The position numbers were made by a program, and so were the translations under genes. Shown one piece after another: positions 44,958-61,308 of a stretch of DNA of 64,000 bases. Where the stretch lies: contig NZ_JABFAO010000009.1 of assembly GCF_017168235.1 (NCBI RefSeq), positions 124,001 to 188,000 on the forward strand. The letters run 5' to 3'. The DNA comes from Rhodococcus sp. KRD197. Lineage in GTDB: Bacteria > Actinomycetota > Actinomycetes > Mycobacteriales > Mycobacteriaceae. A model generated the notes under the pieces. It made no database searches. It saw only the letters and a program-made list of their open reading frames with translations, and was not told where the DNA came from. How positions within the stretch are numbered: position 1 is the stretch's first letter; each line of letters opens with the position of its first letter.

Positions 44958-45154
44958 TCGACACCCTCCTTCTAGCGCGCACGTTCAGTGCGAGAGAAGG
45001 CGCACCTGCTCATCGCAATTTACTGCTTTGGGGTATTGAGCGCCGTCGTTCGAACAGTTGACTTCCGTCGACCGCTATTGGCTCGGAACCGACGGTGCCG
45101 GCCAGATCGATTCCCGGCGCACCAATCGATCTGGCAGGCCACGAAGCCAGCGGC

Positions 45155-45646: not shown

Positions 45647-45684
45647 GATTTCCTTTCGAAGATCAGTGGAAATGGACCGGTTGT

Positions 45685-45834: not shown

Positions 45835-46019
45835 GGAAGGTCGTCCTTTCGAAAGGTGTGATGGGTTCTATTCGAAACTGTGCATGAGACGGCGAAGCCT
45901 TTCAATCATCTGGTCGCAGTACACGACTCGGTGATGGCCGAAAGTGGAGGGGGCTCCGGGGGTTCGGTATTTCGTGCAGCAAGGCGATTCGCGTCTTGTT
46001 CCACGAAAGGAACTTGGCC

Positions 46020-47465
46020 ATGTCTCCGATACGGACGACTCGAACTGCTGCAGGAGTGAACGGCGCCCTGGCGACGTTCCGGAAGGCTGTCGAGACCACC
46101 GACGCCTATCCACGGTTTCTGTCCGAGTTGGGATTCGACCCGAACACCGTCGCGTCAGCACCGGACTTCTCGTTTGTCCCGCCTACGACGAAGAAGAACT
46201 ACGTGCATGCCTACGAATTGCCACAACTCATCCCGGGAGGCGACGCCACGTCGACGCGCATCTATTCATCCAGCTCAGGATCATCTGGTCCACCTACTCA
46301 TTGGCCGCGCGCGAAGCTGTCCCTGGACCACAGTGTCGTTCTGCATGAGCGGATCCTGCGCCAGCTGGGTGCCGACCGACTGTCGACTCTCGTGGTGGTG
46401 TGCTTTGCAATGGGCGACTGGATCGGCGGAACGTACACACTTCGTGCGATCGAAGAGCTGCACGACCGCGGGTTTCCGGTGTCTGCAGTGGCCCCGGGGG
46501 TCCACGTCGACACCGTTCGTGTGGACGTGGCCTCACTCGGGATGCACTACGACCAGGTGATACTTGCCGGCTATCCACCGTTCGTTCGTGACGTCCTGGA
46601 CGGCGCCGGGCACGACGTCCTGAGCCAGAACATAAAGTTCTTGCTGGCAGGTGAGAGCATCGGAGAGAGCTGGCGAGACGGAATTCTGAGGCTCGTGGGA
46701 AAAGTCGATCGCCCGGAGGACGTGTGTTTGGTCTATGGCACCGCCGACGCGGGGATGATCGGGCACGAGACATCGACGACGATCGCGGCGCGGCGTTTGG
46801 CGTTGCAGCACAACGAACTCGACGCGACGCTGTTCGGTGGGTCCGCCGCGTCGTCGACGCTGGTCGAGTACGATACCTCTCTGCGGTACATCGAAACCGA
46901 CGAGCAGGGTTACCTACTGTTCACCGTCGACAACACGATTCCCTTGGTGCGCTACCGGATCAACGACATCGGTGAAGTCATCACCCCCTGTGAGCTACGT
47001 CGTCAGTTGGCCGACCTGGGGCACGATCTCGACGTGGCGACCTCGACCGAGCATTCGCAGTTCGTCGTGGTGAAACAACGCGCTGATATTGCGGTCTCGT
47101 TCTATGCCGTGAACATCTACCCTGAACCGGTCCGCGCCGCACTCGCCGATCCACAGTTGACCGACGCGATCACCGGCAAGTTCGTTCTTGGACGTCGTAC
47201 AGGCAATGACCTCCGCGACACCTTGCACTTGCACGTCGAGCTCCGGAAGGGCGTTGAGTTGCCAGTAGGTCCGAATGCGGAGTGCGCCAGAATGGTTCGC
47301 CGCAGTGTAGTGGACGCCTTGATGTTATCGAGTAGTGAGTTCAACGAGCTTCACGGAATGTACGGGGCCGCGGTGGAGCCCGAGGTGGAATTCCATCCAT
47401 ACGGGAGCGAGGGCTTTCAATTGCAGATCAAGCAGAGCGCTGTCGAGCGGGTAGGTTCGCTGTGA
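46020..47465 (+). CDS. Adenylate-forming ligase (PaaK/phenylacetate-CoA ligase-like)
   Basis: A 481-residue adenylate-forming enzyme. The phosphate-binding loop reads YSSSSGSSGPPTHWPR near residue 82. The middle part has LVYGTADAGMIGHE, and the hinge region YRINDIGEV lies near 308. These match PaaK-type ligases, which make acyl-AMP and pass the acyl group to CoA or another carrier. I chose ATG 46020 because AAAGGAA lies 8 bases upstream. Its stop overlaps the start of the ThiF-like gene, so the two act together. The substrate is unknown; the pair is not part of a normal phenylacetate cluster. Confidence 0.8.
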   Translation: MSPIRTTRTAAGVNGALATFRKAVETTDAYPRFLSELGFDPNTVASAPDFSFVPPTTKKNYVHAYELPQLIPGGDATSTRIYSSSSGSSGPPTHWPRAKLSLDHSVVLHERILRQLGADRLSTLVVVCFAMGDWIGGTYTLRAIEELHDRGFPVSAVAPGVHVDTVRVDVASLGMHYDQVILAGYPPFVRDVLDGAGHDVLSQNIKFLLAGESIGESWRDGILRLVGKVDRPEDVCLVYGTADAGMIGHETSTTIAARRLALQHNELDATLFGGSAASSTLVEYDTSLRYIETDEQGYLLFTVDNTIPLVRYRINDIGEVITPCELRRQLADLGHDLDVATSTEHSQFVVVKQRADIAVSFYAVNIYPEPVRAALADPQLTDAITGKFVLGRRTGNDLRDTLHLHVELRKGVELPVGPNAECARMVRRSVVDALMLSSSEFNELHGMYGAAVEPEVEFHPYGSEGFQLQIKQSAVERVGSL

Positions 47466-48562
47466 TCGAGATACTGGACCCCAAGACCGACTCTCGCCGG
47501 ATAGACGAATTGTTGCAGCCGAACTGCGGTATGCACTACGTCGACGGATGGAAGTCGGCCCGATCGGAGCTCGCCGCAATCGACGCGTTCGGACCCGCAT
47601 CCGTGAACTGGGACGACGATCGCGTCATCGAGGACTCGAGCCGCTACATCGTTTATCCCTGGCGATCGACAATGGTTCGGCTCCCGGCTGACGAGCACTT
47701 CTATCGTTTGCGGACCGCGCGCAACAGGTACTTGCTGGACGATGATGAGCAGCGACAATGGGGATCAGCTTTGATCGGAGTCGCAGGGCTCAGCGTGGGT
47801 GCATCGGTGGTGTCGGTGTGCGCGCTGACAGGGGCGCGGCGATTCCGCATCGCCGATCCCGATACCTTGGGGCCCAGCAATCTGAACCGACTGCAGGGTT
47901 CGGTGTGCGACCTCGGGATGTCCAAAGTGACTCTTGCGCAACGCCGACTTCTGGAGACCGATCCGTACTGTGACGTCTCGGCACATCCGAACGGATACGA
48001 CAGCCTCGATGGCAGTTTCCTCGGCAGTGTGGGCGGAGAACAGCTATCCGTGCTCGCGGAGGAAATGGACGATCTCGCACTGAAAGTAGTAGTTCGGCAA
48101 CAGGCTCGGGTACTTGGTATTCCAGTGGTGATGGCAACCGACAACGGTGACAACGTCATCCTCGATGTCGAGCGGTACGATCTCGATGCCGACTATCCGC
48201 TGTTCCACGGCAGGGCAGGCGAACTCACCGGAATGGACGTCTCGGAGCTCGACGACCCTCGCAACAGAATCCGCATCGCGAGCGCAATCGTCGGCAGTGA
48301 CGTGACGCCTCGTACCAGGTATTCGTTGACGCAGGTCGGCTGTTCGCTTCCGTCGTGGCCTCAGCTCGGCACCGCCGCCAACGCTGCCGGCTCAGTCGCG
48401 GCGTTGGCGGCGCGGTTGATCGTGTCGGGTGCAGACATGCAATCCGGTCGGTATCGCGTCGATCTCGACCGAATCCTGCTGGGTGACGCGGCTGCGTCGG
48501 CAACCCGGTGGAACGAACTCGACGAGTACGCCTTCGCAGCATTGATGGCGCAACGCTACTAG
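47462..48562 (+). CDS. ThiF/E1-like adenylyltransferase
   Basis: A 366-residue protein with an E1-type Rossmann core. IGVAGLSVGASVVSVCALTG gives the nucleotide loop. The Asp and Arg of the adenylation site lie in RIADPDTLGPSNLNRLQG near 131. VVMATDNGDNVILDVERYD is the later acidic block. The family adenylates C-terminal glycines of ubiquitin-like or peptide substrates. No zinc CxxC pair is seen. GTG 47462 overlaps the stop of the ligase gene. The two AMP-using enzymes probably make or attach a small modification; no ubiquitin-like partner was found nearby. Confidence 0.75.
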   Translation: MIEILDPKTDSRRIDELLQPNCGMHYVDGWKSARSELAAIDAFGPASVNWDDDRVIEDSSRYIVYPWRSTMVRLPADEHFYRLRTARNRYLLDDDEQRQWGSALIGVAGLSVGASVVSVCALTGARRFRIADPDTLGPSNLNRLQGSVCDLGMSKVTLAQRRLLETDPYCDVSAHPNGYDSLDGSFLGSVGGEQLSVLAEEMDDLALKVVVRQQARVLGIPVVMATDNGDNVILDVERYDLDADYPLFHGRAGELTGMDVSELDDPRNRIRIASAIVGSDVTPRTRYSLTQVGCSLPSWPQLGTAANAAGSVAALAARLIVSGADMQSGRYRVDLDRILLGDAAASATRWNELDEYAFAALMAQRY

Positions 48563-48577
48563 AACCTGGTGGCGCAC

Positions 48578-50002
48578 TCAGTCCTCGCGCGCGTGTAAAT
48601 GCGATGGGGAAGGCGTCGTCACTTTCGTTCTCGCGGCGGCAACGGTCGTGGTCAAGGACGCCCACACGAGAGGGGAGTGGGCGATGTTGCCGTCGCCCGC
48701 AGCCCACTTCGCCAGTTGCCCTTGCTGCCAACGATGAAGCGACTGCAATGGGTCGGCGCTGGCGTGTGAGCGATCCACCGCTAGCGCGAGCTCGACGGTA
48801 GGGACGACAGACTTTCGAAGACCGGCAGCCGTATGGAACGCATGATCGGTCGGAAGCGTCCAACGTGTGGTGGTGACCAGCGACGCGCCGGAATCCACCA
48901 TGGCCATGACCAAGCCGAAAGTCTCCGCAGAACGAAAGTCGACGCCGCCCTCGCACGCGATCAGGGCAACACGTGACGGAATCGGCCAAATCTCGTGCCC
49001 AGACTGGGGTTTATCCGAACCGTAGGCCCTCCAAACATGCGGATCGGTGCATTGCTGCGTGCCCAACAGAAAGTCCAACGCGCACAGTGGGAGATGGTCA
49101 CCTGGATGGGCGGGTGCTCGCTCACCGAGACGGGTCCGTGGTCGCAGCGCCTCGGCCATTCCCCAACGGCTCGCATCGGAACTCGATGCACCTGATGTGT
49201 CGTGCAGATGGATGGACGCCGAACCCGGTTCATCCGTGGTCGAAGATACGTGCCCGAAGTAGAACAATCTCGAGAGCGGGATGCGTAATTCGCGCGACAG
49301 GTCGACTCTGTCGATGGTCTGCGACGCGTTCAACCCACTCGAAGACACCGCACTGCTGGAGGCCTTGGCATTTGTTGCGAGCCCAGCGAGTAGGGCGTTC
49401 TTCGCGATGCCCGACAGTGTGCGGCCGAGCCCGTGGTCTATGGCGCGGGTTGGCAAAGATGGATCAAGGATGTGCAGCGCGGGAAGATGTTCGACCTCGC
49501 TCCATGCAGGCGGGAGGACGGTGCGTTCGGCATGCACCGTCGTCGGCGGGTCCAGCGTGACCATCGCGACGTCCAGCAACCGCCGATCAGGTGTGACGAA
49601 CAACAGCTCCCACGGCACGCGCGCCAACCGTGGACTGGGCGTCACACGTAGGTGGACACCTCCATGACGCAGCGACCGCTCGACGATCTCCTCACGCAGC
49701 GTCTTCGGAAACATCACCTCGGTGAGGGCCGCGGACAACGTTCTTTCGGTGTCAGGCTTCGCAAACGCGCCCGTGAGCAGCGCACGACGGGTGGCCGCGT
49801 CCTTCGATTCGAATTGGTCCGTGCCGACAGGCAAGGGTGCGAGCAATGCACAATCGAGTAGATCGACAACGTCCTTCACCACGGTCCCGTCGAGCCTGAC
49901 CGCCTGCGAACTCCCCGGGGTGTCCAACCAGGTCCACGACAGGTAGGTATCACCGGCGTCGGCGACCCGAACCAGGACCGTCGGTTGATGCGCGCTGCTC
50001 AT
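48578..50002 (-). CDS. CHAT-domain caspase-like protease
   Basis: A 474-residue protein. The N-terminal 120 residues are a beta-rich prodomain. The CHAT peptidase (clan CD) follows, with RLARVPWELLFVTPDRRLLD at its entry, catalytic His251 in LFYFGHVSST and Cys350 in RVALIACEGGVDF. Both catalytic residues are in place, so it should be an active cysteine protease. CHAT proteases are usually fused to TPRs or controlled by a sensor. Here the TPR protein is a separate gene in the divergent operon. The start overlaps the preceding gene's stop (ATGA), making it last in a three-gene unit. Confidence 0.85.
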   Translation of the reverse strand: MSSAHQPTVLVRVADAGDTYLSWTWLDTPGSSQAVRLDGTVVKDVVDLLDCALLAPLPVGTDQFESKDAATRRALLTGAFAKPDTERTLSAALTEVMFPKTLREEIVERSLRHGGVHLRVTPSPRLARVPWELLFVTPDRRLLDVAMVTLDPPTTVHAERTVLPPAWSEVEHLPALHILDPSLPTRAIDHGLGRTLSGIAKNALLAGLATNAKASSSAVSSSGLNASQTIDRVDLSRELRIPLSRLFYFGHVSSTTDEPGSASIHLHDTSGASSSDASRWGMAEALRPRTRLGERAPAHPGDHLPLCALDFLLGTQQCTDPHVWRAYGSDKPQSGHEIWPIPSRVALIACEGGVDFRSAETFGLVMAMVDSGASLVTTTRWTLPTDHAFHTAAGLRKSVVPTVELALAVDRSHASADPLQSLHRWQQGQLAKWAAGDGNIAHSPLVWASLTTTVAAARTKVTTPSPSHLHARED

Positions 50003-51402
50003 TCGCTTCCCGACAACGGCGATGGCAGTAGCTCGGCCAATAGCGGCTGCGCTCCTGCGGGTTGGTCGAGTCGTGACTCCAACCGGTCGACGAATGCTTC
50101 GATGGCTGCAACTCGGTTCGCGACGAGGACGGCAAGCGGTGTGTCCGAGGCGTCGGCAGCCGCCTTCAGGACATTCAACGCTGTCAGCGCCCGGCCGGCT
50201 GCTTCGACCGCGTCGCGCACGAAGCCATCCGCGGCCGACTGGGCAAGAGCTAGCACGTCCTCGTCAGCACCGAGATTCACGGCCGCGAGAACGGCGTGCG
50301 CGGTACGACTGAGCATCCACGCGTCGAGCATGTGGCGGTCGACGCTGATCAGTTGTTCGGCCATCGGTCCCGAGCGCAGACGCCGAGGTGGGGTGTCGGC
50401 GTCGAACAGTCCGAATACGGTTGTATCAAAGGATGTTTCGTCTATCGGAAGAGATCCGACGAGTGCGTGGCCCTGCACCATCATCGGTATCGTTGCGATC
50501 AGCTTTCCAGTTCGGTCGGCAGCGAAGCCGAGGATCCGGTTCGCCTCACCACACTGCGGGTCCACGGCTGCGTCGAGCTCAACTGAGAGCAGTACGCGGA
50601 GCGTCGGCGTGGTTGTATCCACCTCGGCTGTCCACTCGGGAGTACCTGCACCGCTCCACCGCAGAATTCGCGGGGGCAGCACGTGCGGATCGATGTACCC
50701 CCGTTGCACCTCGGCGCGGGCGATCGACGGGCCGCCCGCCATACCCACATCGACGAGGCCGAAAGACTTGTCGTCGACGAGCTCCTCCAGCCAAATTTCA
50801 AGCTTCGTCTCGTCGATTTGCCGGACCGTGTCGACGCGGTCGGCCATTGTGATCAACTGATAGCCCCAGGACAACCCTCTTGCCGCAGCGCTGGCAGCCC
50901 TGGTCAAGTTGGCCAGCTCGGATAGTGCGCCGCCGGAGAGTTCGCCGTTCACTGCGTCGTCGGCGAGTGAATCCAAGGTCGGAAGAGCATGGGCGACGAG
51001 CCTGCTCGCGCCGTCGGTGTCGCCTGTTCGGCGTCGTGCACCGGCCTCGTCCAGCATCAATGCGCCCTCGTCGATCGGAGACATCCACCAGCGTGCGACC
51101 GCCGCGGTCGTAGCGCGTCGTGTCCAGTCGGCATCGAGATGAAAAGCCTCGCAACTGATCACGGCTCCAGGACCGTCGGACTCGAGCAGGTGCGTGAAGT
51201 CGGATTCGATACACGCTCGGGTGAGCGAGCCCACGTCGGCCTCGCGCGCGATGGTCCATCCCATCAGCGTCGACGGATCCGCTGCATCGACGACGACGTT
51301 CACTCCAGGCCCCAGCTCGAGAGAGACTTCTGCTACTGCGGGCGCGGTGTCGCCGTCCCAGTGCATTCCTGCGTCGTCGACGCGGATCGGGTGGCGGCTC
51401 AT
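49999..51402 (-). CDS. Unknown protein, CHAT operon middle gene
   Basis: A 467-residue soluble protein I do not recognise. Residues 1-110 are beta-rich, the next 100 are helical (LSELANLTRAASAAARGLSW), and residues about 220-340 are a beta-rich domain (TEWTAEVD-type strands around 285). The last 130 residues are Ala-rich helices (AHAVLAAVNLGADEDVLALA). It overlaps both neighbours (ATGA at each end), so it is made together with the CHAT protease and may be its substrate, activator or inhibitor. A CATRA-type conflict-system component is a possibility I cannot confirm. Confidence 0.6.
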   Translation of the reverse strand: MSRHPIRVDDAGMHWDGDTAPAVAEVSLELGPGVNVVVDAADPSTLMGWTIAREADVGSLTRACIESDFTHLLESDGPGAVISCEAFHLDADWTRRATTAAVARWWMSPIDEGALMLDEAGARRRTGDTDGASRLVAHALPTLDSLADDAVNGELSGGALSELANLTRAASAAARGLSWGYQLITMADRVDTVRQIDETKLEIWLEELVDDKSFGLVDVGMAGGPSIARAEVQRGYIDPHVLPPRILRWSGAGTPEWTAEVDTTTPTLRVLLSVELDAAVDPQCGEANRILGFAADRTGKLIATIPMMVQGHALVGSLPIDETSFDTTVFGLFDADTPPRRLRSGPMAEQLISVDRHMLDAWMLSRTAHAVLAAVNLGADEDVLALAQSAADGFVRDAVEAAGRALTALNVLKAAADASDTPLAVLVANRVAAIEAFVDRLESRLDQPAGAQPLLAELLPSPLSGSE

Positions 51403-52886
51403 CCCGCATTACCCGTCAGGCGATCCCACGCGACTCGATGTCCGCGCAGTGCGCTCAGCACATCGGCGGTCTTCCCGGCCCACGTCTGCCCCGGCTTCCT
51501 ACTGCCGACCAATTCGACACCATCGTTGCCGAATACGTCGTCGTCGTGGATAGCCATAGAGAGCGCGCCCCTCGTCAATTGCAGGGCCAAAGAAATCGAT
51601 GCGGTGCGGGTCGGCGCCAATGTGTCGGATGGGCGCACTTGGTCGTACCTCTCACGTAAGGTCTGCTCGAGCGCGCTCGCACCGTGTCCGGCGACCGAGC
51701 CGGCGTCTGCCAAGATCTCGAGCGCTATCGCCCGCTCCCAGCACATCGCCTGCCCATTCCACTTCCAACTCCACGCATTGTTCGATTCGATTGGAGTTTG
51801 TGCCAAGTACGAGCGGGCCTGTGTGAACAGGGTCTTGATTTCGGTGCTGCGGTAGCCGAGTTCCAGATGCGATGTGTCCAAATCGCTTGCCGACTTCCTC
51901 GCGCTCTCCCTGATCAGCGCACGCTGCAGATCCTGCCTCGCACGCGCGAAGTTCGAACCGTAGACCTCAGCTATCGTGTTCTCGTCCAGCTCGGCGGCAT
52001 CCATATGGAGTCTGAGCAGGTTCCGTCGCGCGCGACGCCACGCCTCGCCGCGCACGTCCGCGGTGGTGTAGAGGGTGCTGCCTTCGAGTAGCGGGAGATC
52101 CGAACGGAATCGAGTGGAATTCGATTTTGTCAGGAAGCGGTCGAGCTTGTGCTCGACGTACGAGATCTCGTGCTCGGTCGGGAGCCGATCCGACACGTCA
52201 GCTTCTCCGTATAGCTCGGTCAGTCGCTCGATTGCGGCAGCGACCGAGGCGGAGACCCTTTCGTCGGACGCATCGTCGATACGTTCGCGATACTCCGTCA
52301 GCTTGCCGTTGTACGAGCGCATCGATGCCGCGACTATTGCCGAACGATAGCGGTTCGGGTTGTCGATGTAGTGGTCCGCGTGGTCTCGAGATTCCACGAC
52401 TGTGCCGCATGCCTCCGAGGTGACCATCGCTTGGCGAGCGGCGGTCCGCGGTGGACCGTCCTCGTACTTGCGCAGCACCTGCGCAATACGTGCAGGCAGT
52501 CCGACAGGGCGTTCCAGGCGGACGTCGGCAACGACACCAGCCGAGCACCGCGCAAAGGTGTCCCCGTACTCGACAGCGACGGCACTCACCAGATCCCACT
52601 GATCGACGCCTCCGAGAACTTCATTGGTGCCCAGCCGCAGGCGTCGAGAAGCTTCCGGCGAAAACCGTCGCGCCACCCACTCCGCAGAACCCAGCGTCCC
52701 CATCCAGGCCGCCAAGTCTTCGGCCAGGTGTTTCACATTGGGTTTCGGCTCCGCAGTCGCTCTGACCCACAGAGCGATCAGCTGGTTGCGCGAAACGGAC
52801 TCTTCGGCGTATCGCCCCCTGCCGAGCTCCCTGCCCACCCACCATCCACTGATTGCCCAGTCAGTGCGAGCCGACTGAAGCGGCAT
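51399..52886 (-). CDS. Unknown helical protein, first gene of CHAT operon
   Basis: A 495-residue mostly helical soluble protein. No known domain stands out. Charged helices such as RRARRNLLRLHMDAAELDEN and YTEYRERIDDASDE-like stretches suggest protein-protein contacts. ATG 52886 has AAGGAG 8 bases upstream; in-frame codons further up lie in the divergent promoter gap. Its stop overlaps the next start (ATGA). It opens the three-gene minus-strand operon that ends in the CHAT protease and diverges from the membrane/TPR/AAA operon. Confidence 0.6.
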   Translation of the reverse strand: MPLQSARTDWAISGWWVGRELGRGRYAEESVSRNQLIALWVRATAEPKPNVKHLAEDLAAWMGTLGSAEWVARRFSPEASRRLRLGTNEVLGGVDQWDLVSAVAVEYGDTFARCSAGVVADVRLERPVGLPARIAQVLRKYEDGPPRTAARQAMVTSEACGTVVESRDHADHYIDNPNRYRSAIVAASMRSYNGKLTEYRERIDDASDERVSASVAAAIERLTELYGEADVSDRLPTEHEISYVEHKLDRFLTKSNSTRFRSDLPLLEGSTLYTTADVRGEAWRRARRNLLRLHMDAAELDENTIAEVYGSNFARARQDLQRALIRESARKSASDLDTSHLELGYRSTEIKTLFTQARSYLAQTPIESNNAWSWKWNGQAMCWERAIALEILADAGSVAGHGASALEQTLRERYDQVRPSDTLAPTRTASISLALQLTRGALSMAIHDDDVFGNDGVELVGSRKPGQTWAGKTADVLSALRGHRVAWDRLTGNAG

Positions 52887-53099
52887 GCAATCGACTCCTT
52901 CGGTTCTTTGGTCCCGGGTCATGGTGCCAAGAAAATGCGGCCCTGCACAGCGGCGTCATTCATTCAATCTACGGGCGGTGTCCTTCTGCCGAACGACTAC
53001 CGCGCACCGTGGATCTGGTCGATCATGTATCCCGCACTCGAGGTCTCGAAGTGTCTCGCATCGCCGCGCCCGCGGCATGGTCCAGCGGAAGTGAGCGGC
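52887..53099. promoter_or_regulatory. Divergent promoter region of the CHAT/TPR operons
   Basis: This 213-base gap separates the divergent starts at 52886 and 53100. It should hold both promoters. TTCATTCAATC near 52958 repeats one arm of the palindrome at 6016-6035, but the second arm is missing. No clear -10/-35 pair could be chosen. Confidence 0.4.
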
Positions 53100-53909
53100 A
53101 TGACCGCGGTTGTAGTCATCTTGGGAACCGCAATGCTGGTGACCTACTTCGTGCTCGGTCGCAGATTGATCGATACCCGCGACACAAGACCGAAAACGCT
53201 GTCGGACCTGTACCCCTACGGAAGCGCCTTTCTGGCGGGGTTCGTAGCGACCGCCGCATTGATTCAGATAGGTGGATCGGGATCGATTGCGGTCGGTTCG
53301 GCTGGAACGCTTGGATTGATTGTCGCAGTGTTCGCCCTCACAACTGGTTGGCTACAGAATATTCCGCCAGTCGAATTGGGTAAAGATCTGCTGTATTCCG
53401 TTCTCGGTCTTGTTGCCCTGATACCGGCTCTGTCAAGTGTCACCGCGCCGACAATCTGCGGGGTCGAGAGCAATGTTCCGTTGCGGATCAGTGTGATAGC
53501 GCTCTTCCTTGCTCTCGCAGTCCTCTGCGGTGGCTTCGGCTTCTATCTTCGACCCAAGCGATACTCAGCGGTTAGCAGCGTCGGACTGAGCTGGTTCGGT
53601 GCCAGTGAGATCGTCTTGTTCTTGGCCTCTCCGGTCGGGTTGGCAGGTGGGCCCGGACCTGAAATCGCCGGTATCGTCGGGGCCGTCGCTCTGGGAGCAA
53701 TCATCGGATTCGCCCCGGAGTACGGCTTGTTGACGGTAGGCGTGGGGCTTGCCTGCGTCTTCCTGTTGACCTCGGCGACGGGGACGACGTTGGATTGCCA
53801 GCATGTCGATTCGCTCGGCTCGGTCACTGTTTTCACTACCTACGCGGTCGTGTTCGGCCTCGGACGTTTTGTGATCGGCAAGGTTCGCACGGGGAGGGTG
53901 TCCAGATGA
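53100..53909 (+). CDS. Polytopic membrane protein
   Basis: A 269-residue protein with about eight membrane helices (AVVVILGTAMLVTYFVLG, ALFLALAVLCGGFGFYL and GLLTVGVGLACVFLLTSA among them) and short loops. No transporter motif is recognised. It is the first gene of the plus-strand operon, starting at ATG 53100, and its stop overlaps the start of the TPR gene (ATGA). It may anchor the system or be the membrane target of the CHAT pathway, as pores are in gasdermin systems, but no gasdermin features were seen. Confidence 0.6.
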   Translation: MTAVVVILGTAMLVTYFVLGRRLIDTRDTRPKTLSDLYPYGSAFLAGFVATAALIQIGGSGSIAVGSAGTLGLIVAVFALTTGWLQNIPPVELGKDLLYSVLGLVALIPALSSVTAPTICGVESNVPLRISVIALFLALAVLCGGFGFYLRPKRYSAVSSVGLSWFGASEIVLFLASPVGLAGGPGPEIAGIVGAVALGAIIGFAPEYGLLTVGVGLACVFLLTSATGTTLDCQHVDSLGSVTVFTTYAVVFGLGRFVIGKVRTGRVSR

Positions 53910-56476
53910 CTTCCGAGACATCATCTTTGGATGCAGAGATGTACGCGGGTGTCCGCTTGGTAGAGGAGGGTCGCGCGCGCGACGGACTGCACGTATTGGA
54001 ACAAGCGTTAGTCGGGTGCGAGCAGGCGGGTGATGTGCGTCGTATCGGGTTGTGCTTGCGCTGGGTCGGCGCTGCCCATGCTGAACTTGGGTCGAGTGAG
54101 ATGTCCATAAGATCTCTACACCGAGCGATCGTGAATTCGTCGAGTGCGGACGACGTTCCTCTCGAGGCGGACTGTAGGGGATTGCTGGGTCTGGTGTTGT
54201 TCGACAGCGGCCATACCGAGGACGCCGTCGAACAACTTCGTCAAGCATGCGCGCTGAGCGAATCGTGCGGCGACATCGAGTCCGAAGCGAACTGTTCGAG
54301 CGCTCTTGCCGAAGTGTACGAAGAGATGAGCTGCTATGAGCCGGCGAGAACGTTGTATCAACGTGCGGCCGAGCTCTTCTGGTCGGTCCACTATGCAGCC
54401 GATTCGGCCGAGAACCGAGAGAGTGCCGGCCTGTGTTCGATCGATCTTGACGAGTCAGAGGCTGCGCGGGATGACTTCGGGTTGGCTTGTGAGCTGTTCG
54501 CGCGCGAAGGTGACGACTTCGCTGTGGCACGTTGCCTGTTCTTGCTCGGTGTGTGTTCCGTCGAGGACGACCCTGCCGGGGCTGAACGGAACTTCAAAGC
54601 CGCGATCGAGCATCTCGACGGGCCCGAACACGCGGATCTGGAAGGGGATTGTTGGGAGCAACTGGGGGATCTTTACCTCGACGCTCAGCGCGTCGAAGAG
54701 TCGTTTACAGCCTTCGGGAACGCCCTTGCCCTCCACGAGCGAACCGGGCGCGCTGTACGAAGCGCCCACTGCTACAGGCAGGTCGGCCGACTACACGCAC
54801 ACCTGCGAGCGGTCGGACCCGCGGTCGAGTCGTTCGAGGCCGCACGCAGCCTGTACGTGGATGTCGATCCTGGTGAAGCAGTAGACCTCGACATCATGCT
54901 CGGTCGGATCTTCGAGGACCTCGGAAAGTACCCCGCCGCGATAGCCAGCTACACCCGAGCCCGGCAGACAAGTATCCCACTCGATGACGCCGTTGTGACG
55001 GCGTTGTGCGACATGAACACCGGCACCGTGCGAATGCATCTCGGTGACCACACCACGGCGCGAGCTCTTCTGGTCGGCGCTGCCGACACCTTCGCGCGAT
55101 GCGGGGCGCGGGTCGAGGAGGCGCAGTGTCTGCGATACCTTTCGTCCGTTCAGCCCAGCACTACGGAGCAGAGCGCCGAGTTGCTCGCCAAGTCCCTACG
55201 GCTGATCGACGGCCTGGGTGAGGTCGAATTGGAGCTCGACTGTCGCCAGGACCTCGCGCTCGTCCAGTTCGTGCGGGGAAACTACGAGCGCGCGGTGGGG
55301 GAGTACGAATCGGTACGAGAGGCATTTCTTGGCCTTGAGATGCATGAGAAGGCGGGGTTGTGCTTGCAGAGCGTCGGAATGTGCTTGATGAGCATGGGGC
55401 GCTACGAGAAATCCGAACGCGCACTGATCGAATCGAGGGCCGTTTTCGTCAGGCACAAAATCCCGGCTGCAGTCGCCGTATCGGACGGTCACCTCGGGCA
55501 GCTCTACCTCGATACCGGTCGATTCGACGACTCCGAACACGCGTTCCGTCGCGCACGACAGGGGTTCGAGTCAGTCGGCGCGACGGATCGAGTCGCAATG
55601 ATCAATCAGAACCTCGGCGGGCTATACCTGGCGCGAGACGATCTCGGTGCGGCCGAGCTCTCGTTCTCGCGGGCGCACGAGCAGTTCGCGCGTCTCGGTG
55701 ACTCTGCGAGAAGTGCCGTCTGTCAGTGCAACATCGGGGCTGCGGTGTTCAAGAAGGGACAGTTCGAACGGGCATCTTCCCTGATCGGTCGGGCTCTCAT
55801 CCACCTCGAGCGCGACCCAGATCACCGAAGATTGGTCGCTTGGGCTCACCGCAACCGCGCGTGCGCCGAATTGATGCTGGGCAACTGTGAGCAGAGTCTG
55901 GTTTTCCTCGGGTCGGCACGAAGTATGTCGAAGGAACTCGATGCGCTGATCGATGTGGCGAAGTGTGACTTCCTGGCCGCGCTGTGCCAGGCGTCGGTTC
56001 CTGGGCACGACAGTCTGCGCGCCGCGCTTGATCTTGCGTTGCCCGCGCTGCTGTACCTCGATGCCCAACGGTTCCAGTTCGCCAGTGCGGCAGCCCGTAG
56101 GTCGTGGTCAACGACGATATCGTTGTGGAACACGCATGTGTTCAAGTGGGCACATGAACTGGGTGACGCGACGCTCTTGACTGATCTGATCGAGTCGGCG
56201 ATCAACTCGGGTACCCACGTCTCAGAGGTGTCAGTCGACACGCATGCAGCGCTCTCCGAAGTGAGTTTCAGCTCCGACAGTGACGCACCCACTATGGACG
56301 TCGCCGACGCGGTCGCCGGCGTCGCTAGGACTCTGATCGCCGGCTCCGTTCTACCGATGCGGCCGCCGCCGAGGTTGTCGATGCCGGGCGGCCGGATCGT
56401 GCTTGGACAGTTCCTTCAGTCCGTTGACACTCGCTATGGTCTGGTCGTTCGTCCCGCAACGGTGAACGTCGCATGA
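53906..56476 (+). CDS. Large TPR protein without CHAT domain
   Basis: An 856-residue protein built of about 16-18 tetratricopeptide-type helix pairs (for example AEVYEEMSCYEPARTLYQRA and LGQLYLDTGRFDDSEHAFRR). Near residue 730 it changes to a helical linker (FKWAHELGDATLLTDLIESA) of the type that joins TPRs to a CHAT domain in fused proteins. Here it ends in 100 further residues with no protease motif. The CHAT protease is instead coded on the divergent operon, so this is probably the sensor/scaffold half of a split TPR-CHAT pair. The start overlaps the membrane gene stop. Confidence 0.8.
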   Translation: MTSETSSLDAEMYAGVRLVEEGRARDGLHVLEQALVGCEQAGDVRRIGLCLRWVGAAHAELGSSEMSIRSLHRAIVNSSSADDVPLEADCRGLLGLVLFDSGHTEDAVEQLRQACALSESCGDIESEANCSSALAEVYEEMSCYEPARTLYQRAAELFWSVHYAADSAENRESAGLCSIDLDESEAARDDFGLACELFAREGDDFAVARCLFLLGVCSVEDDPAGAERNFKAAIEHLDGPEHADLEGDCWEQLGDLYLDAQRVEESFTAFGNALALHERTGRAVRSAHCYRQVGRLHAHLRAVGPAVESFEAARSLYVDVDPGEAVDLDIMLGRIFEDLGKYPAAIASYTRARQTSIPLDDAVVTALCDMNTGTVRMHLGDHTTARALLVGAADTFARCGARVEEAQCLRYLSSVQPSTTEQSAELLAKSLRLIDGLGEVELELDCRQDLALVQFVRGNYERAVGEYESVREAFLGLEMHEKAGLCLQSVGMCLMSMGRYEKSERALIESRAVFVRHKIPAAVAVSDGHLGQLYLDTGRFDDSEHAFRRARQGFESVGATDRVAMINQNLGGLYLARDDLGAAELSFSRAHEQFARLGDSARSAVCQCNIGAAVFKKGQFERASSLIGRALIHLERDPDHRRLVAWAHRNRACAELMLGNCEQSLVFLGSARSMSKELDALIDVAKCDFLAALCQASVPGHDSLRAALDLALPALLYLDAQRFQFASAAARRSWSTTISLWNTHVFKWAHELGDATLLTDLIESAINSGTHVSEVSVDTHAALSEVSFSSDSDAPTMDVADAVAGVARTLIAGSVLPMRPPPRLSMPGGRIVLGQFLQSVDTRYGLVVRPATVNVA

Positions 56477-56606
56477 AGTGTCTGTCGAAGTCCACTGTTC
56501 CGTCGATTGGCCGACAGACACGGCTGCGCTCGGGATCTAGTGTTGCAAACTGTCGCTACCCGTCACAGAGTGACGTGTTCGTCCGGACGAGTAGGAATCG
56601 AGAGCT

Positions 56607-57092
56607 TTGGCCGAGATAAGCAGAAGACGATCTGCGCATCGTGCAGACGCAGTATTACTGCAGCCGATAGGCAAGCCCAATGCCCTTGCCAAGGGTGCGC
56701 CGCCCAACAATTACCAGCTTTCCCAGCGGATGAAGCGTCGCTCCCGAGAACTTCTCGTAGCAGTCGGCACGCTCGACACGTCGCTGGATCCGCGGGCCAA
56801 TGCAGAGATCATGAAATTGATCCGAGATTATTACGATGCACGTCAGGGCGGGGCGCTGATCGGGCTGTTCGGCCGCTGCTATCTCGGGCCACCTTACGTT
56901 GACCACAAACTCGATATTTACGGCAACATTTGTCAGCACTACACGGCTTCGGACACTGTCGAAATGCCCTACAACAACGCACGTGCACTGGTTCGAAACG
57001 ACGCATATGCGTTCGTGGAACTGTACTCGGACGGATCGATCGTCCCCGTGCGCGACGACGGCGAGCCAGTACGAACCGGATCAACCTTCTAG
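56607..57092 (+). CDS. Unknown small protein in TPR/AAA operon
   Basis: A 161-residue protein if the TTG at 56607 is used; ATG 56730 would give 120 residues. It has no family I recognise. The core reads GALIGLFGRCYLGPPYVDHK and then YTASDTVEMPYNNARALVRN, with a basic N-terminus. The sequence looks like a compact alpha/beta domain with many aromatic residues. It lies between the TPR gene and the membrane coiled-coil gene, all in the same direction. The start is uncertain. Confidence 0.5.
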   Translation: MAEISRRRSAHRADAVLLQPIGKPNALAKGAPPNNYQLSQRMKRRSRELLVAVGTLDTSLDPRANAEIMKLIRDYYDARQGGALIGLFGRCYLGPPYVDHKLDIYGNICQHYTASDTVEMPYNNARALVRNDAYAFVELYSDGSIVPVRDDGEPVRTGSTF

Positions 57093-57123
57093 TGAACTAC
57101 TGGCCGACGAAAGGGCCCGTGCA

Positions 57124-58872
57124 ATGACCGAAGACTACACACGCAATTTTCAGCAGGTCCTCAATGCAGTCAGTTCCGTCAACCACAATCTGTCGACGGT
57201 GAGTGACCAGGTGACCGAGGTGACCACTCAGGTGGGGGTGGTATCGCGTGACCTTACCGTCACCACTGATGAGCTCCGAGAGCTGCGCAAGGACTTCCAG
57301 GAATACGTTCTGCAGGCCGAGCGCACAGCCAACGTTCAGCGGTCCGAAACGGTCCTCGGCAACGTCGAGGCTGCCCTCGAGCGCGAGTACGGCCACTACA
57401 AGGTGGTGCGCCGTACCTCGATCGGAACGCTTCAGGCGTTCGACCTCGGGAACGTCAGCAATCATACTGTGCAGCAGGTCAGCGAGGAGCTGATGATTCA
57501 GACTCCGCGCTACTGGCTTGCGCCGGCACTCGTAGCGCTCGCGAGCTGGTCACGCGACGACGAGGATCTGTGCTCGCGCTCGATCGACGCCGCATTCTCT
57601 CGTGATCCCCGCAAGACGAGCCTCTTCTTCGCGCTCACTCTGCGGCGCCAAGGTCGCCTGGAAGCGTCGACGCGCTGGCTCAAGCACTACCTGTCGTCAC
57701 TCGATCCGCACGCCCTCAGCCGCGAATTCGCGGTGATCCTGGAGGCGGCAGCACAGGATGCCTTCGGTGCGCACGGCCAACAGCTCATCGCGGCGCAACT
57801 CACCGAATGGAACAATAGATTGCGCGCCGACCAGTCAGTCGTCGCCGCTCAGGTCACAGCCTGGCAGAACGAAATTTCGCTGCATCGACCAACTGTGGTG
57901 GACGCCGAGTTCCCTCACCTATCCAAGATCAGCCCACAATGGGACGAGGTGAAGCACGCGCTGGAGTGCGCGGGAGCCCTTGGTTTCACGCAGGCCAAGT
58001 ACGCACAGATCAAGTCTTCGCCGAATGATCTGGGGCTATCGACCATCGACCGTTTGGACGACATTCTCGAACTGTTGGTGACCGAGTTCGACACCGAGGA
58101 ACTCCCTTTTCAACGCGACGCGGTCTACCATCGTGCCGTCATCGAGCATGCTGGCGACCTCGATCGCGCCCGGCAGGAAGCCGACGCACTCAACGTCGCC
58201 CTCGAAGAGACGCTTGACGTCATATCTCTTCAGACCCAATCAGCACTTCGGCCCGAACTGTTGGGTGTTTCGATCGGTACCCAAAAGGTGGCAATCGGAG
58301 TGTCGCGAGACGACTTTCAGCATGCTGTCGGCGCCTTCACCGCCGACTACCGGATGAAGTACCTTGACAAGGTGGAGTTGACGCTCGACCAGAACCACTC
58401 GAACTATGCGCAGACCCTCGGGTTCAAGGGTTGGAGAACCGATACCGAATTGCCCCAGGCAGAGGCGGAAAAGTCTCTGGCCGGAGTGTGGGAGTCGTCG
58501 GTCGCCGAGTATCTCGAACGGGTCCGCTTCAAGGAAAGCTACTACCTCAAGGCAGGCGGAATCGCCCTCGCTCTTTCGATTATCGGTTTCCTGATCTTCG
58601 GCGTCGGCGGGCTTCTGGTGCTTCTCGTGTCTGGTGGAGTTGCTGGCTACATGATCTGGAAGAACAAGACCGACGCCGAGAAGAAGTACCAGGAAGCACT
58701 GGCTGTGCGAGAGCAGGCATTTCAGTTCTCTGTCGATATCTATCGAGCGGCAGTGGCCGAGTACGTCGACACCAAAGTCCTGTACTCGGATGAGGACGCG
58801 AAAGAACAACCCCTGTTGAATCTGATCGGCACGTGGCCCACGGTGGCAGGTAGGCAGGACGTCTCCGCATGA
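57124..58872 (+). CDS. Coiled-coil protein with C-terminal membrane hairpin
   Basis: A 582-residue protein. Residues 10-65 are a heptad-type coiled coil (NAVSSVNHNLSTVSDQVTEV). A helical, TPR-like body follows (APALVALASWSRDDEDLCSR near 130). Near 478-520 two adjacent hydrophobic stretches (IALALSIIGFLIFGVGGLLV and VSGGVAGYMIW) form a membrane hairpin. A last charged helix faces the cytoplasm. ATG 57124 is 32 bases after the previous gene, and the stop overlaps the next start (ATGA). It probably holds the complex at the membrane. Confidence 0.65.
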   Translation: MTEDYTRNFQQVLNAVSSVNHNLSTVSDQVTEVTTQVGVVSRDLTVTTDELRELRKDFQEYVLQAERTANVQRSETVLGNVEAALEREYGHYKVVRRTSIGTLQAFDLGNVSNHTVQQVSEELMIQTPRYWLAPALVALASWSRDDEDLCSRSIDAAFSRDPRKTSLFFALTLRRQGRLEASTRWLKHYLSSLDPHALSREFAVILEAAAQDAFGAHGQQLIAAQLTEWNNRLRADQSVVAAQVTAWQNEISLHRPTVVDAEFPHLSKISPQWDEVKHALECAGALGFTQAKYAQIKSSPNDLGLSTIDRLDDILELLVTEFDTEELPFQRDAVYHRAVIEHAGDLDRARQEADALNVALEETLDVISLQTQSALRPELLGVSIGTQKVAIGVSRDDFQHAVGAFTADYRMKYLDKVELTLDQNHSNYAQTLGFKGWRTDTELPQAEAEKSLAGVWESSVAEYLERVRFKESYYLKAGGIALALSIIGFLIFGVGGLLVLLVSGGVAGYMIWKNKTDAEKKYQEALAVREQAFQFSVDIYRAAVAEYVDTKVLYSDEDAKEQPLLNLIGTWPTVAGRQDVSA

Positions 58873-59102
58873 TTGAAAACAACACAAGTTCTCCGATCGT
58901 TCGTCGAACGCAGCGAACGCCTTTCGTTCCGCCGAACCCGGAGCAAGCAGAAGGCCCAGCGGTGTCGCGGCTATGGTCGCTTGGTGCGCGATCGTCGGGT
59001 AGAACGGAGCTCCCACGTAATCGGAAGATCGCCGGAGATCTACCGTCATGGGATCCGATGCCGCCCGGAGAGGTGCTCGTCCGCCGTGGTTCTGCTACGT
59101 GA
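58869..59102 (+). CDS. N-terminal fragment of a probably frameshifted gene
   Basis: The ATG overlaps the stop of the membrane coiled-coil gene (ATGA), as expected for a coupled gene in this operon. The product is 77 residues, basic and Pro-rich (PFVPPNPEQAEGPAVSRLWS), and ends abruptly in a short tail. The next reading frame picks up with PPWFCYVTTSSSGYELWVRA. I infer one gene broken near 59085-59095. An alternative is a genuine small protein followed by a separate gene starting at 59048. Confidence 0.4.
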   Translation: MIENNTSSPIVRRTQRTPFVPPNPEQAEGPAVSRLWSLGARSSGRTELPRNRKIAGDLPSWDPMPPGEVLVRRGSAT

Positions 59103-59746
59103 CAACAAGTAGTAGTGGCTATGAATTGTGGGTCCGGGCACTGCGGGCATGGGCGATGGATCCAGCGCATCCAATGTTGGATTTGCCGGTCCTGACAGAA
59201 TCGTCGTTGCCCCCCAGCGCATACCAGCGACTTCTCGGGCATCTGAATGCAGCCTTGTCCACCGCAATGACGCGTTGGTCGTCCGAATTCACTGTTCAGT
59301 GGGGTCGAGCCACAACCGAACACGACCGTGAACGCGCAATGGTTCAGATGCGCACGAAACTTGCACGTCGGTTGCAGCTCGCGGCACACCCATCGCTCCC
59401 CGTGGTGATTCGAGATCTCCTGAGGGAGGGTGCAGCGACGGACATCCGCAACCTGCAGCAGGAAATCGAAGACAATCTGCTCAAGAGCACCCAGAACGCG
59501 TCGAGCGACAGAAACGTTCGAGAACGGTTGTTGAAGACAGCGAGAGTGAACTCATTGACCGCCATCCTCGAACCCAACTTTCCGCTCGACGCACTCTTGC
59601 GTCCAGAGCCTGCTGCTCCGCCCACTGAAAGGCGAGTGGCGCTGGACGAGGGCTTGAGACACGTCGGTTCGCCTGGGGTGCAACGCAGTTCGAAGCGCAG
59701 GCTGGTGGTTGTCGAATGCAATCCGACCGAGGAAGGCCACAAGTAA
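59048..59746 (+). CDS. Unknown helical protein before the AAA gene
   Basis: A 232-residue frame. After an unconvincing start it reads RPPWFCYVTTSSSGYELWVR, then a helical body (HLNAALSTAMTRWSSEFTVQ and IRNLQQEIEDNLLKS). No known domain. ATG 59048 has GGAG about 9 bases upstream. It may instead continue the fragment at 58869-59102 after a frameshift, giving about 290 residues. The stop overlaps the AAA gene start (TAATG), so it is translationally coupled to the ATPase and may be its adaptor. Confidence 0.5.
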   Translation: MGSDAARRGARPPWFCYVTTSSSGYELWVRALRAWAMDPAHPMLDLPVLTESSLPPSAYQRLLGHLNAALSTAMTRWSSEFTVQWGRATTEHDRERAMVQMRTKLARRLQLAAHPSLPVVIRDLLREGAATDIRNLQQEIEDNLLKSTQNASSDRNVRERLLKTARVNSLTAILEPNFPLDALLRPEPAAPPTERRVALDEGLRHVGSPGVQRSSKRRLVVVECNPTEEGHK

Positions 59747-61308
59747 TGCCCAGCAAGGTCGACACAGCAGACATACTCGAGCGGTTTCTGAAAGCGCGGG
59801 TTCCTCTCATCGTTCTGCGTACGATCGAGGGAACACGCGGCCTCGATCTGCTGAAAGGCGTTGCGTCCAAGTTCCGGGCGATGCCGTTTTACTATCACTC
59901 GCGGGCTACCGGATTGTTCGACATCACCAGTCCGACCCCTGTAATCGATGATCGCAGCTTTGTCGGGGCGCTCGACTTCGCCACAGCAACATTCTCCGCA
60001 CGGAACAATGCCAACTTCATCCTGACGGACGTCGACGATATCGAGAATGACAGCTCGTCGGCGAGGCACTTGGCTGAGATCTCGAGACTCGCAGAGACTC
60101 ATCAGGGATCGATCATCGTCATTGCCTCGGGGCCTGTCTGGTCTGGTCTGGCCAGGTTGGGAATGTCGGTGTCTCTCGACTTGCCTGATGCGAGTGAGCT
60201 GTACACCGACGTGGTCAAAGCTTACGTCGACGACCATCGTGCCGTGATGCGCATCGAGTGGGAACACGAGGAGATGCGGCTCGCATCCGAGGCGCTCGTG
60301 GGCGTCACCGAAACCGAAGCGATCAACGCCATCACCACGATGCTTGCACGGGGATCTCTGCTCAAAGACGATCTCTCAGAGCTTTCCGTCTTCAAGGACC
60401 AGATTTTCGGTGAGCTCAGTGGAATCGAACGTGTCAAACTGAAGGACAACGACTATCAGGTCGGGGGCCTCACAACACTCAGAGAATGGTTGACAACGCG
60501 GCGCGAACTCATTCGTGCCGACCTCAGCGGAACCCATCTGCATCCCCCGAAAGGGGTATTACTCGTCGGCGTACCGGGGTGTGGGAAGTCGCTGAGCGCA
60601 AAAGCCATTGCCGCCGAGTGGAAGCTACCGCTCTACAGGTTGGACATGGCGTCAATCCTGGGGATGTATGTCGGGGTGTCCGAAAGTCGATTGAAAGAAG
60701 CACTCGATACTGCTGACCGGATCGCACCATGCATCCTGTGGGTCGATGAAATCGAAAAGGCGCTCGCTGGAGGCAATTCGGACTCTGGCACCACGACTCG
60801 CCTGATCGGACAATTTCTATTCTGGCTACAAGAATCCACGTCGAAGGTTTTCATGGTGGCGACTGCCAACGATGTGTCGGCGCTTCCTCCGGAGTTGCTT
60901 CGCAAGGGTAGGTTCGACGAACTCTTCTTCGTCGATCTTCCGGACGAGCGTGATCGATCGGAGATTATCTGCCTCTACTTTCGCAAGTACTTGCAGGTCG
61001 AGCCCAGCGCGGAACTCTTGGCCGCTTTGGCGGAGATATCGGACGGCTTCGCTGGCTCGGACATCGAATCCGTTGTTCACGACATCGCGGCAGCGATGTT
61101 CATGCAGCATCGGGACACACCGCCCGGCGACGAATACATCAAAGACGTATTCGCGAACGTCATGCCATTCAGTCGAACCAACCCGGAAGAGGTGGCCGCT
61201 ATCAGGGCGTGGGGTCGCGATCGAGCAATACCAGCAGGCCGATCGACTCCACTCGACGCGCGTCAGGCGTCCGCGACAACGTCTCGCCGCCTAGTGATTT
61301 TGAGCTGA
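59746..61308 (+). CDS. AAA+ ATPase, Ycf46/CDC48-like
   Basis: A 520-residue protein. The N-terminal 230 residues form a Ycf46-type domain (VPLIVLRTIEGTRGLDLLKG), with a degraded nucleotide fold (ANFILTDVDDIENDSSS). The AAA+ module has Walker A VGVPGCGKSLSAKAIAAEW near 275, a pore-loop-like YVGVSESRLKEAL, Walker B CILWVDEIEKAL near 331 and an arginine-finger region PPELLRKGRFDE. AAA+ proteins of this kind unfold or remodel proteins as hexamers. In this operon it may remodel the TPR/CHAT partners. ATG 59746 overlaps the previous stop. Confidence 0.85.
   Translation: MPSKVDTADILERFLKARVPLIVLRTIEGTRGLDLLKGVASKFRAMPFYYHSRATGLFDITSPTPVIDDRSFVGALDFATATFSARNNANFILTDVDDIENDSSSARHLAEISRLAETHQGSIIVIASGPVWSGLARLGMSVSLDLPDASELYTDVVKAYVDDHRAVMRIEWEHEEMRLASEALVGVTETEAINAITTMLARGSLLKDDLSELSVFKDQIFGELSGIERVKLKDNDYQVGGLTTLREWLTTRRELIRADLSGTHLHPPKGVLLVGVPGCGKSLSAKAIAAEWKLPLYRLDMASILGMYVGVSESRLKEALDTADRIAPCILWVDEIEKALAGGNSDSGTTTRLIGQFLFWLQESTSKVFMVATANDVSALPPELLRKGRFDELFFVDLPDERDRSEIICLYFRKYLQVEPSAELLAALAEISDGFAGSDIESVVHDIAAAMFMQHRDTPPGDEYIKDVFANVMPFSRTNPEEVAAIRAWGRDRAIPAGRSTPLDARQASATTSRRLVILS

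What the first reader, a model, noticed from the sequence alone, without database searches (positions are those of the whole stretch)
48578..61308. Split CHAT/TPR/AAA+/membrane system on two divergent operons
A CHAT protease with both catalytic residues (His251, Cys350) is the last gene of a three-gene minus-strand operon. Across a shared 213-base gap, the plus-strand operon codes for a polytopic membrane protein, a TPR protein with a CHAT-type linker but no protease, an unknown protein, a membrane-anchored coiled-coil protein, a probably frameshifted protein and a Ycf46-like AAA+ ATPase. All but two neighbouring pairs overlap by stop-start. CHAT and TPR are normally fused, and CHAT proteases act in conflict or cell-death systems. 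I infer a membrane-linked, AAA-gated protease system, possibly a CATRA-like conflict system or a new one.
Basis: partly seen in the sequence, partly recalled or inferred. Interest (0 to 1): 0.8.

Follow-up and report, generated by a model that had tools for sequence, protein, structure and literature searches.

The report
Two defence-like modules, CHAT protease and AAA
Ten genes in a bacterial defence island turn out to be two separate gene sets lying side by side, one built around a self-destruct type protease and one a widespread but apparently unnamed five-gene ATPase set that elsewhere often sits next to similar proteases, so this looks like undescribed anti-phage machinery.

Summary
The genes are real and mostly as described, but the "frameshifted" gene is two overlapping genes, and the locus is two modules. 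Module 1 is [p507-p467-CHAT] divergent from [6-TM protein-TPR]. It recurs in Mycobacteriales, including Rhodococcus plasmids; in 12 of 15 genomes with p467 the AAA genes are absent from the stretch read. Catalytic His251 and Cys350 are invariant in 15 of 15 CHATs.

Module 2 is a five-gene cassette: small Cys/His protein, coiled-coil/TPR-like membrane protein, two small proteins, AAA+ ATPase. A genome scan gave 134 relatives; of the 80 loci kept, 62 show all five genes. Five phyla, plasmids and a satellite phage carry it. Only the ATPase has a named domain.

The strict single-system reading fails, as each module occurs alone. Still, 36 of 80 cassette loci have a CHAT and/or caspase within about 9 kb (about one expected), though 31 of 35 such tree rows form one clade; the rest lie in three other places. 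Other neighbours include TIR, PNP and HerA/FtsK proteins. CATRA is not supported. Best reading: two juxtaposed abortive-infection modules, the cassette being a reusable ATPase core that repeatedly pairs with caspase-fold proteases. Function is untested.

The parts
48578..50002 (-). CHAT-family (caspase-fold) cysteine peptidase, 474 aa; His251/Cys350; module 1
   Evidence: H251 and C350 invariant in 15 of 15; Pfam CHAT reached by close relatives (6.5e-9, 1.3e-9), not by the window copy itself
49999..51402 (-). p467, unknown family, partner of CHAT; module 1
   Evidence: found in 15 of 351 family genomes, CHAT beside it in 14 of these 15
51399..52922 (-). p507, unknown family, first gene of the CHAT operon; module 1
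   Evidence: relatives in the same order on two Rhodococcus plasmids and in 14 of 15 p467 genomes
53100..53909 (+). A, membrane protein, six hydrophobic segments, 269 aa; module 1 (start uncertain)
   Evidence: divergent A-TPR beside p507-p467-CHAT without the cassette in L170 and L171
53906..56476 (+). B, TPR protein, 856 aa, ends in a linker shared with TPR ORFs that precede CHAT; module 1
   Evidence: C-terminal profile hits the ORF next to or holding CHAT in 20 of 20 fetched relatives
56607..57092 (+). C, 161 aa (TTG start), invariant Cys91, His100, His111; module 2
   Evidence: found in 74 of 80 cassette loci; model pLDDT 85
57124..58872 (+). D, 582 aa, N-terminal coiled coil, TPR-like helices, long C-terminal helix with one hydrophobic segment; module 2
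   Evidence: the query by which the 80 loci were found
58869..59102 (+). E1, 77 aa, conserved C-terminal stretch around WD/WN and RR; module 2
   Evidence: 66 of 80 loci, 70 of 80 with rebuilt profile
59048..59746 (+). E2, 232 aa; overlaps E1 by 55 bases in another frame; module 2
   Evidence: 77 of 80 loci
59746..61308 (+). F, AAA+ ATPase, 520 aa, intact Walker A and B; module 2
   Evidence: near full-length match to phrog_8638 3.4e-89; 74 of 80 loci

Best explanation
Two defence modules lie side by side in a defence island. Module 1 (p507, p467, CHAT, membrane protein A, TPR) is a split TPR/CHAT peptidase system. Inferred action: the TPR protein and one of p507/p467 hold the peptidase off and sense an infection signal; the freed CHAT cuts a partner (A, p467 or p507 are candidates), which damages or stalls the cell. 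Module 2 (C, D, E1, E2, F) is an ATPase cassette. Inferred action: membrane-anchored coiled-coil D scaffolds a hexamer of F, the small proteins E1/E2 act as adaptors, and ATP-driven remodelling arms or disarms whatever effector lies next to the cassette: CHAT and caspase proteases in Streptomyces and Micromonospora, perhaps TIR or HerA/FtsK proteins elsewhere, and module 1 in this lineage. Shown: gene content, the separateness and recurrence of the modules, conserved catalytic residues, repeated CHAT/caspase neighbours, mobile and defence contexts. Inferred: defence function, the order of events, and coupling of the two modules here.
For: Module 1 recurs as a unit without the cassette. Module 2 recurs as a unit: all five genes in 62 of 80 loci. 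CHAT and/or C14 caspase near 36 of 80 cassettes: 29 both, 4 CHAT only, 3 C14 only, against 0.70 CHATs and 0.49 caspases expected from density in 13 carrier genomes. In those 13 genomes Pfam itself places a CHAT inside the held stretch in 13 of 13 and a C14 in 11 of 13 (positions). The protease label lies in four places on the D tree. Other neighbours: CAP12-type TIR, TIR_2, PNP-HEAT, FtsK, HerA-like. Cassette on Comamonas and Komagataeibacter plasmids, in two viral contigs (L185, L186) and on a streptococcal satellite phage record. The window is rich in restriction and helicase-nuclease genes.
Against: No experiment. 31 of the 35 tree rows labelled 'protease' form one Streptomyces-Micromonospora clade, so independent events are few; the tree's minimum of five forced label changes does not tell gains from losses and includes loci cut by contig ends (L054, L093). 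Of the window's close Mycobacterium relatives, L056 and L058 have an FtsK-like protein upstream and L057 neither. No CHAT/C14 was found with these profiles near any Bacillota or Chryseobacterium locus. Defence islands cluster unrelated systems, so neighbourhood alone does not prove coupling. The 130-base B-C gap leaves room for a promoter of the cassette's own. Folds of C and D gave no PDB match at E <= 0.001.
Confidence: 0.5

Rival explanations
1. One obligate ten-gene machine: the AAA ring and D deliver substrates to, or unlock, the CHAT peptidase held by TPR, p467 and p507.
For: The ten genes kept together at about 92-95% nucleotide identity in G554 and, across contig ends, in G588; recurrent CHAT/caspase next to cassettes elsewhere.
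Against: Module 1 complete without cassette in G398 and G526, and its CHAT operon plus TPR on plasmids; no p507, p467, A or window-type TPR in the DNA held for 80 cassette loci, one of them cut by a contig end; the three joint genomes are of one genus.
Confidence: 0.2
2. Two unrelated defence systems that only share an island; the protease association in Streptomyces is a lineage-specific arrangement of independent genes.
For: Island holds other defence genes; own spacing before the cassette; 44 of 80 cassette loci show no protease, some cut by contig ends; 31 of 35 protease rows in one clade.
Against: CHAT and C14 densities predict about 0.7 and 0.5 in the DNA of the 80 loci, against 33 and 32 loci seen; three further places on the tree outside that clade.
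Confidence: 0.3
3. The cassette is a non-defence complex (envelope or secretion assembly AAA machine) that happens to be mobile, and module 1 a stress-response peptidase.
For: D has a hydrophobic segment and TPR-like helices; AAA proteins mostly more distantly like F occur in 134 phage records.
Against: Sporadic distribution: 7 of 345 class genomes, the window's own included, with a strong D match; satellite-phage, plasmid, TIR, PNP and caspase contexts.
Confidence: 0.15

Closest known systems
TPR-CHAT peptidases (Csx29 of type III-E CRISPR, Craspase; actinobacterial TPR-CHAT proteins)
   Same: TPR protein plus CHAT peptidase with His/Cys dyad; TPR ORF abuts CHAT in relatives. Csx29 seen in abstract starts in a listing (PMC10028731, PMC9729208) and a table passage of PMC10952713.
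   Different: Here TPR and CHAT lie in opposite operons, with two unnamed CHAT partners and a membrane protein; CRISPR parts were not searched for.
CATRA systems (Burroughs and Aravind 2020, not held; one mention seen in a passage of PMC8195603)
   Same: Caspase-dependent conflict system; a TPR link is recalled from the family's name.
   Different: CATRA-N not found in the genome, and no profile similarity to p467 or p507.
IetAS (IetA AAA ATPase plus a protease; the partner is recalled)
   Same: F's AAA core matches PADLOC IetA models (8e-24).
   Different: Match covers only the AAA core (259-473); no protease of the subtilisin kind matched among the genes scanned.
MoxR-vWA ternary and EACC1-caspase systems (Kaur 2020, PMC7159879, abstract and passages)
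   Same: ATPase-thresholded or caspase-dependent conflict systems, common in actinobacteria.
   Different: No vWA or MoxR-type match above a cut-off among the genes scanned; F's best Pfam family is the classical AAA.

Membership tests
CHAT peptidase (PF12770) | Conserved catalytic His and Cys | tested here: met
   H251 and C350 invariant in 15 of 15
CHAT peptidase (PF12770) | Match to the Pfam model | tested here: inconclusive
   Window copy and whole genome below detection; relatives L049 6.5e-9, L050 1.3e-9 and L070 8.5e-10 above the cut-off
TPR-CHAT pair | TPR gene next to or fused with CHAT | tested here: met
   20 of 20 fetched order-level loci; in the window itself the TPR gene is in the divergent operon, not adjacent
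CATRA system | CATRA-N domain | tested here: not met
   0 matches in G000, 2 of 81 genomes positive; hhalign probability 0.05 and 0.2 with p467 and p507 (CATRA profile of only two sequences)
Type III-E Craspase | gRAMP effector and CRISPR array | not tested
   No CRISPR search was made
IetAS | IetA-like AAA over its full length with a subtilisin-like partner | tested here: not met
   Only the AAA core matches; no subtilisin match in the genes scanned
MoxR-vWA ternary system | MoxR-type AAA plus vWA | tested here: not met
   No such Pfam match above a cut-off in the window genes scanned, nor in the L046/L048 copies of C and the L046 copy of E1
Ycf46-type AAA | Ycf46 N-terminal domain | not tested
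AAA+ ATPase | Walker A and Walker B (arginine finger recalled) | tested here: met
   GVPGCGKS, DEIEK and LRxGRFDE conserved in the five aligned sequences

The most novel reading that the evidence does not exclude
C-D-E1-E2-F is the core of a new, phylum-spanning class of bacterial immunity: a membrane-anchored AAA+ machine with exchangeable effectors (CHAT and caspase proteases, TIR, PNP, HerA/FtsK), the ATPase setting the threshold at which a caspase-type protease is released. The window is a recent recombination with an intact split TPR/CHAT module.
Probability: 0.35. Interest if true: 0.85.

Novelty: new variant of a known kind. Interest (0 to 1): 0.64.

Why it matters
If the cassette is an immune core, it adds an ATPase-based, effector-swapping defence family found in at least five phyla. 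Four of its five protein families (C, D, E1, E2) had no match above a curated cut-off in Pfam (window or L046/L048 copies) and no significant one in PADLOC or PHROGs; D and E2 also had none in NCBIfam (C and E1 were not scanned there). It also gives a simple genetic setting (neighbouring CHAT and caspase in Streptomyces, split TPR/CHAT in Rhodococcus) for asking how caspase-fold proteases are held in check in bacteria.

Tried and rejected
CATRA membership: rejected. Frameshift in E: rejected. C as a fragment of the TPR gene: rejected, it is a conserved separate gene. p467 as a CHAT paralogue: hhalign probability 0.2. PADLOC and PHROGs: for the genes scanned nothing significant but AAA hits and a weak TPR hit (the TPR protein was not given to PHROGs). 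PDB sequence search for CHAT: no hit; for F the 60 of 269 hits shown are CDC48/p97-type and related AAA proteins and FtsH. Fold searches of D and C: no match at E <= 0.001; a weak similarity of D to an alpha-pore toxin subunit (6h2f, probability 0.60, E 0.1) is not used. Paper searches for a description listed none that I recognised; passages of PMC10853773 were also seen without a match; subscription papers and preprints are mostly not held.

The first neighbourhood scan used a narrow CHAT profile and saw CHAT in 1 of 80 loci. The Streptomyces fusions were found only by clustering neighbours and counted with profiles built from some of them, so those counts rest on models made from part of the same data. 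Of the proteins so counted, Pfam hmmscan was run on 3 CHATs and 1 caspase and matched all 4, and whole-genome Pfam searches in 13 carriers put a CHAT inside the held stretch in 13 and a C14 in 11 (not L091, L107). The density estimate uses these 13 chosen carriers, rounded genome sizes and Pfam models, not a random sample and not the same profiles. The 80 loci are the best 80 of 134, so they lean towards close relatives. In some searches the query for A was in the wrong frame (start 53101); later calls used 53100. A Spirochaetota bin (L062) is not counted as a phylum because its D row sits among Actinomycetota.
Full report
What was checked. The finding lies at G000:C91, 172578-185308 of the window's assembly (window 48578-61308; offset). 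ORFs and translations confirm a three-gene minus operon and a divergent plus operon. Overlaps are 4 bases for p507/p467, p467/CHAT, A/B and D/E1, 1 base for E2/F and 55 for E1/E2; gaps of 130 and 31 bases surround C. CHAT carries His251 in FYFGHVSS and Cys350 in IACEGG; both are invariant in 15 of 15 sequences.

The 'frameshift' is not one. Downstream of D, two Gram-negative plasmids annotate a 64- and a 61-aa gene followed by a 184- and a 186-aa gene, then the AAA gene. Window E1 (77 aa) and E2 (232 aa) align with these, and in all 66 loci where both profiles hit they are separate ORFs. C is likewise a conserved family of about 160 aa with invariant Cys91, His100 and His111 in 56 sequences.

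Module 1. p467 was found in 15 of 351 genomes of the family, the window's own included. I read 20 kb around 13 of them, plus the short contigs of G588 and the window itself. p507 lies beside it in 14 of 15 (not seen in L179) and CHAT in 14 of 15 (not in L175; in G588 CHAT is on the neighbouring contig end, L134/L145). A TPR gene matching B's end lies within the stretch in 11 of 15 (not seen in G588, L172, L175, L176). Membrane protein A has a strong match in 5 of 15 and a weaker one in 2 more (L176, L178). The AAA cassette is present in 3 of 15 (window, G554, G588). In L170 and L171 the divergent layout [p507-p467-CHAT] / [A-TPR] is complete without the cassette in the roughly 4 kb read beyond the TPR gene. 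On two Rhodococcus plasmids p507, p467 and CHAT form the same order with a TPR gene on the other strand and no cassette gene in the 17 kb read. In Mycobacterium sp. MBM, p507-p467-CHAT lie on the same contig as a cassette but roughly 30 kb away. In 20 of 20 fetched wider CHAT relatives (19 of the 48 positive genomes) a TPR ORF abuts CHAT, as 17 separate and 3 single ORFs, without a match to p507 or p467. So p507, p467 and A look like additions to an ordinary TPR-CHAT pair.

Module 2. A scan of one genome for each of 84,980 species with a D alignment gave 134 relatives, of which the best 80 were kept: Actinomycetota, Bacillota, Bacteroidota, and one bin named Spirochaetia that the tree places among Actinomycetota. 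The plasmid collection adds Pseudomonadota and Fusobacteriota, the latter on a 2.1-Mb record filed as a plasmid. In the 80 loci E2 was found in 77, C in 74, F in 74 and E1 in 66 (70 with rebuilt profiles); 62 have all five, and several of the rest are cut by contig ends. C precedes D in the Actinomycetota and Chryseobacterium loci where it was found, and follows F in the Bacillota loci where it was found, in Fusobacterium and in the satellite phage. A sample of 345 class genomes has a strong D match (E < 1e-50) in 7, the window's own included, and weak ones in 13 more; 2 of 249 order genomes match, again counting its own: an accessory, not a core, gene set. The cassette also ends the record of Streptococcus satellite phage Javan368 as D-E1-E2-F-C (the record's borders are its depositors') and occurs in two IMG/VR contigs, L185 and L186.

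Neighbours. Clustering neighbours showed a roughly 1,400-aa protein with a C-terminal CHAT domain (L074 2.3e-55, L107 1.6e-35) and a C14 caspase (L074 4.7e-20) near the cassette in Streptomyces, Micromonospora and relatives. Profiles built from some of these, with the window's CHAT profile, place CHAT in 33 and C14 in 32 of 80 loci, one or both in 36; 32 of the 33 CHATs are of the other type, one (L070) is of the window's type. Thirteen carrier genomes hold 59 CHAT and 41 C14 matches in 113.7 Mb, which predicts 0.70 and 0.49 in the 1.35 Mb held; in these 13, Pfam finds a CHAT in the held stretch in 13 and a C14 in 11. The D tree (83 rows, of which 77 of the 80 loci; quick method, SH-aLRT only) puts 31 of 35 rows labelled 'protease' in one Streptomyces-Micromonospora clade; the others are the window with G554, L070 and L107. 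Starred branches force at least five changes of that label, gains and losses together, and two rows (L054, L093) may be labelled 'other' only because their contigs end. Twelve loci have an FtsK/SpoIIIE-like protein upstream (Pfam run on one, L055), among them L056 and L058, Mycobacterium relatives of the window's cassette, but not L057. A Monoglobus locus has a HerA-like protein there, one of a cluster of four loci. L070 has an ArgG-like protein, two TIR proteins and a CHAT; L133 a PNP-HEAT protein some 4 kb upstream of C; one Chryseobacterium locus a TPR/HATPase protein with a response regulator. With these profiles no CHAT or caspase was found near any Bacillota or Chryseobacterium cassette.

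Structure. D (53 sequences) models at pLDDT 84.7, pTM 0.65, as a 103-residue helix, shorter paired helices and an 87-residue C-terminal helix holding the hydrophobic segment; its top fold matches are mostly TPR superhelices, none at E <= 0.001. C models at pLDDT 85.4 with no PDB match at E <= 0.001. F keeps Walker A and B and an LRxGRFDE motif, resembles CDC48/p97 in the PDB by sequence, and matches a phage family of unknown function over residues 11-509 (phrog_8638).

Context. The window carries a type I restriction system, a second N6 methylase, two helicase-MTES_1575 nuclease proteins (one with DUF4011 and DUF3320) and an SMC-like ATPase: a defence island. The nearest relatives of the locus are G554 (92% over 44728-60451) and Rhodococcus sp. 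EPR-157 (92-95.5% over three stretches), so the host is probably a Rhodococcus (inference).

Interpretation. The strict single-system reading fails by its own refuting test. What remains is stronger in one way: the ATPase cassette is widespread, without a name in the libraries searched, mobile, and repeatedly found beside caspase-fold proteases. I judge it most likely an immune core with exchangeable effectors, here placed beside an intact split TPR/CHAT module. Whether the two are functionally coupled in this genome is open (I give roughly 35-40%). That I know of no paper describing either module rests on the ten searches listed under Tried and rejected; Kaur 2020 was seen as abstract and passages, the 2021 eLife paper as passages and abstract start, and Burroughs and Aravind 2020 was not held.

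Noticed in passing
window 990-35145: Defence island: SMC/AAA_23 protein, helicase-MTES_1575 nuclease, ResIII helicase with a Sigma70_r4 match, type I R-M HsdR/HsdS/HsdM, a second N6 methylase, and a 2001-aa DUF4011-AAA-MTES_1575-DUF3320 protein.
   Followed up: partly
window 45996-48562: A PaaK-like ligase (4.3e-7, below cut-off) and a ThiF protein like Rv1355c (5.5e-76, below that model's cut-off) overlap by 4 bases and end beside the CHAT gene's 3' end; the same stretch is kept in G554 and EPR-157.
   Followed up: no
window 52935-53139: The start of membrane protein A is uncertain: in-frame ATGs at 52935, 53025, 53100 and 53133.
   Followed up: partly
L070 3008-13850: Propionibacteriaceae cassette preceded by an argininosuccinate-synthase-like gene that overlaps a CAP12-type TIR gene, and followed by a second TIR gene and a CHAT of the window's type.
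   Followed up: partly
L085 contig (G617:C8 16882-24867): Allorhizocola contig with three CHAT domains within 8 kb of each other, the first inside the stretch held beside the cassette.
   Followed up: no
L175 9328-12200: A p507-p467 pair with no CHAT detected in the 20 kb read; may use another effector.
   Followed up: no
L074 14281-15621: Zinc carboxypeptidase (PF00246, 6e-66) downstream of the cassette; the same sequence cluster occurs in 5 of 80 loci.
   Followed up: no
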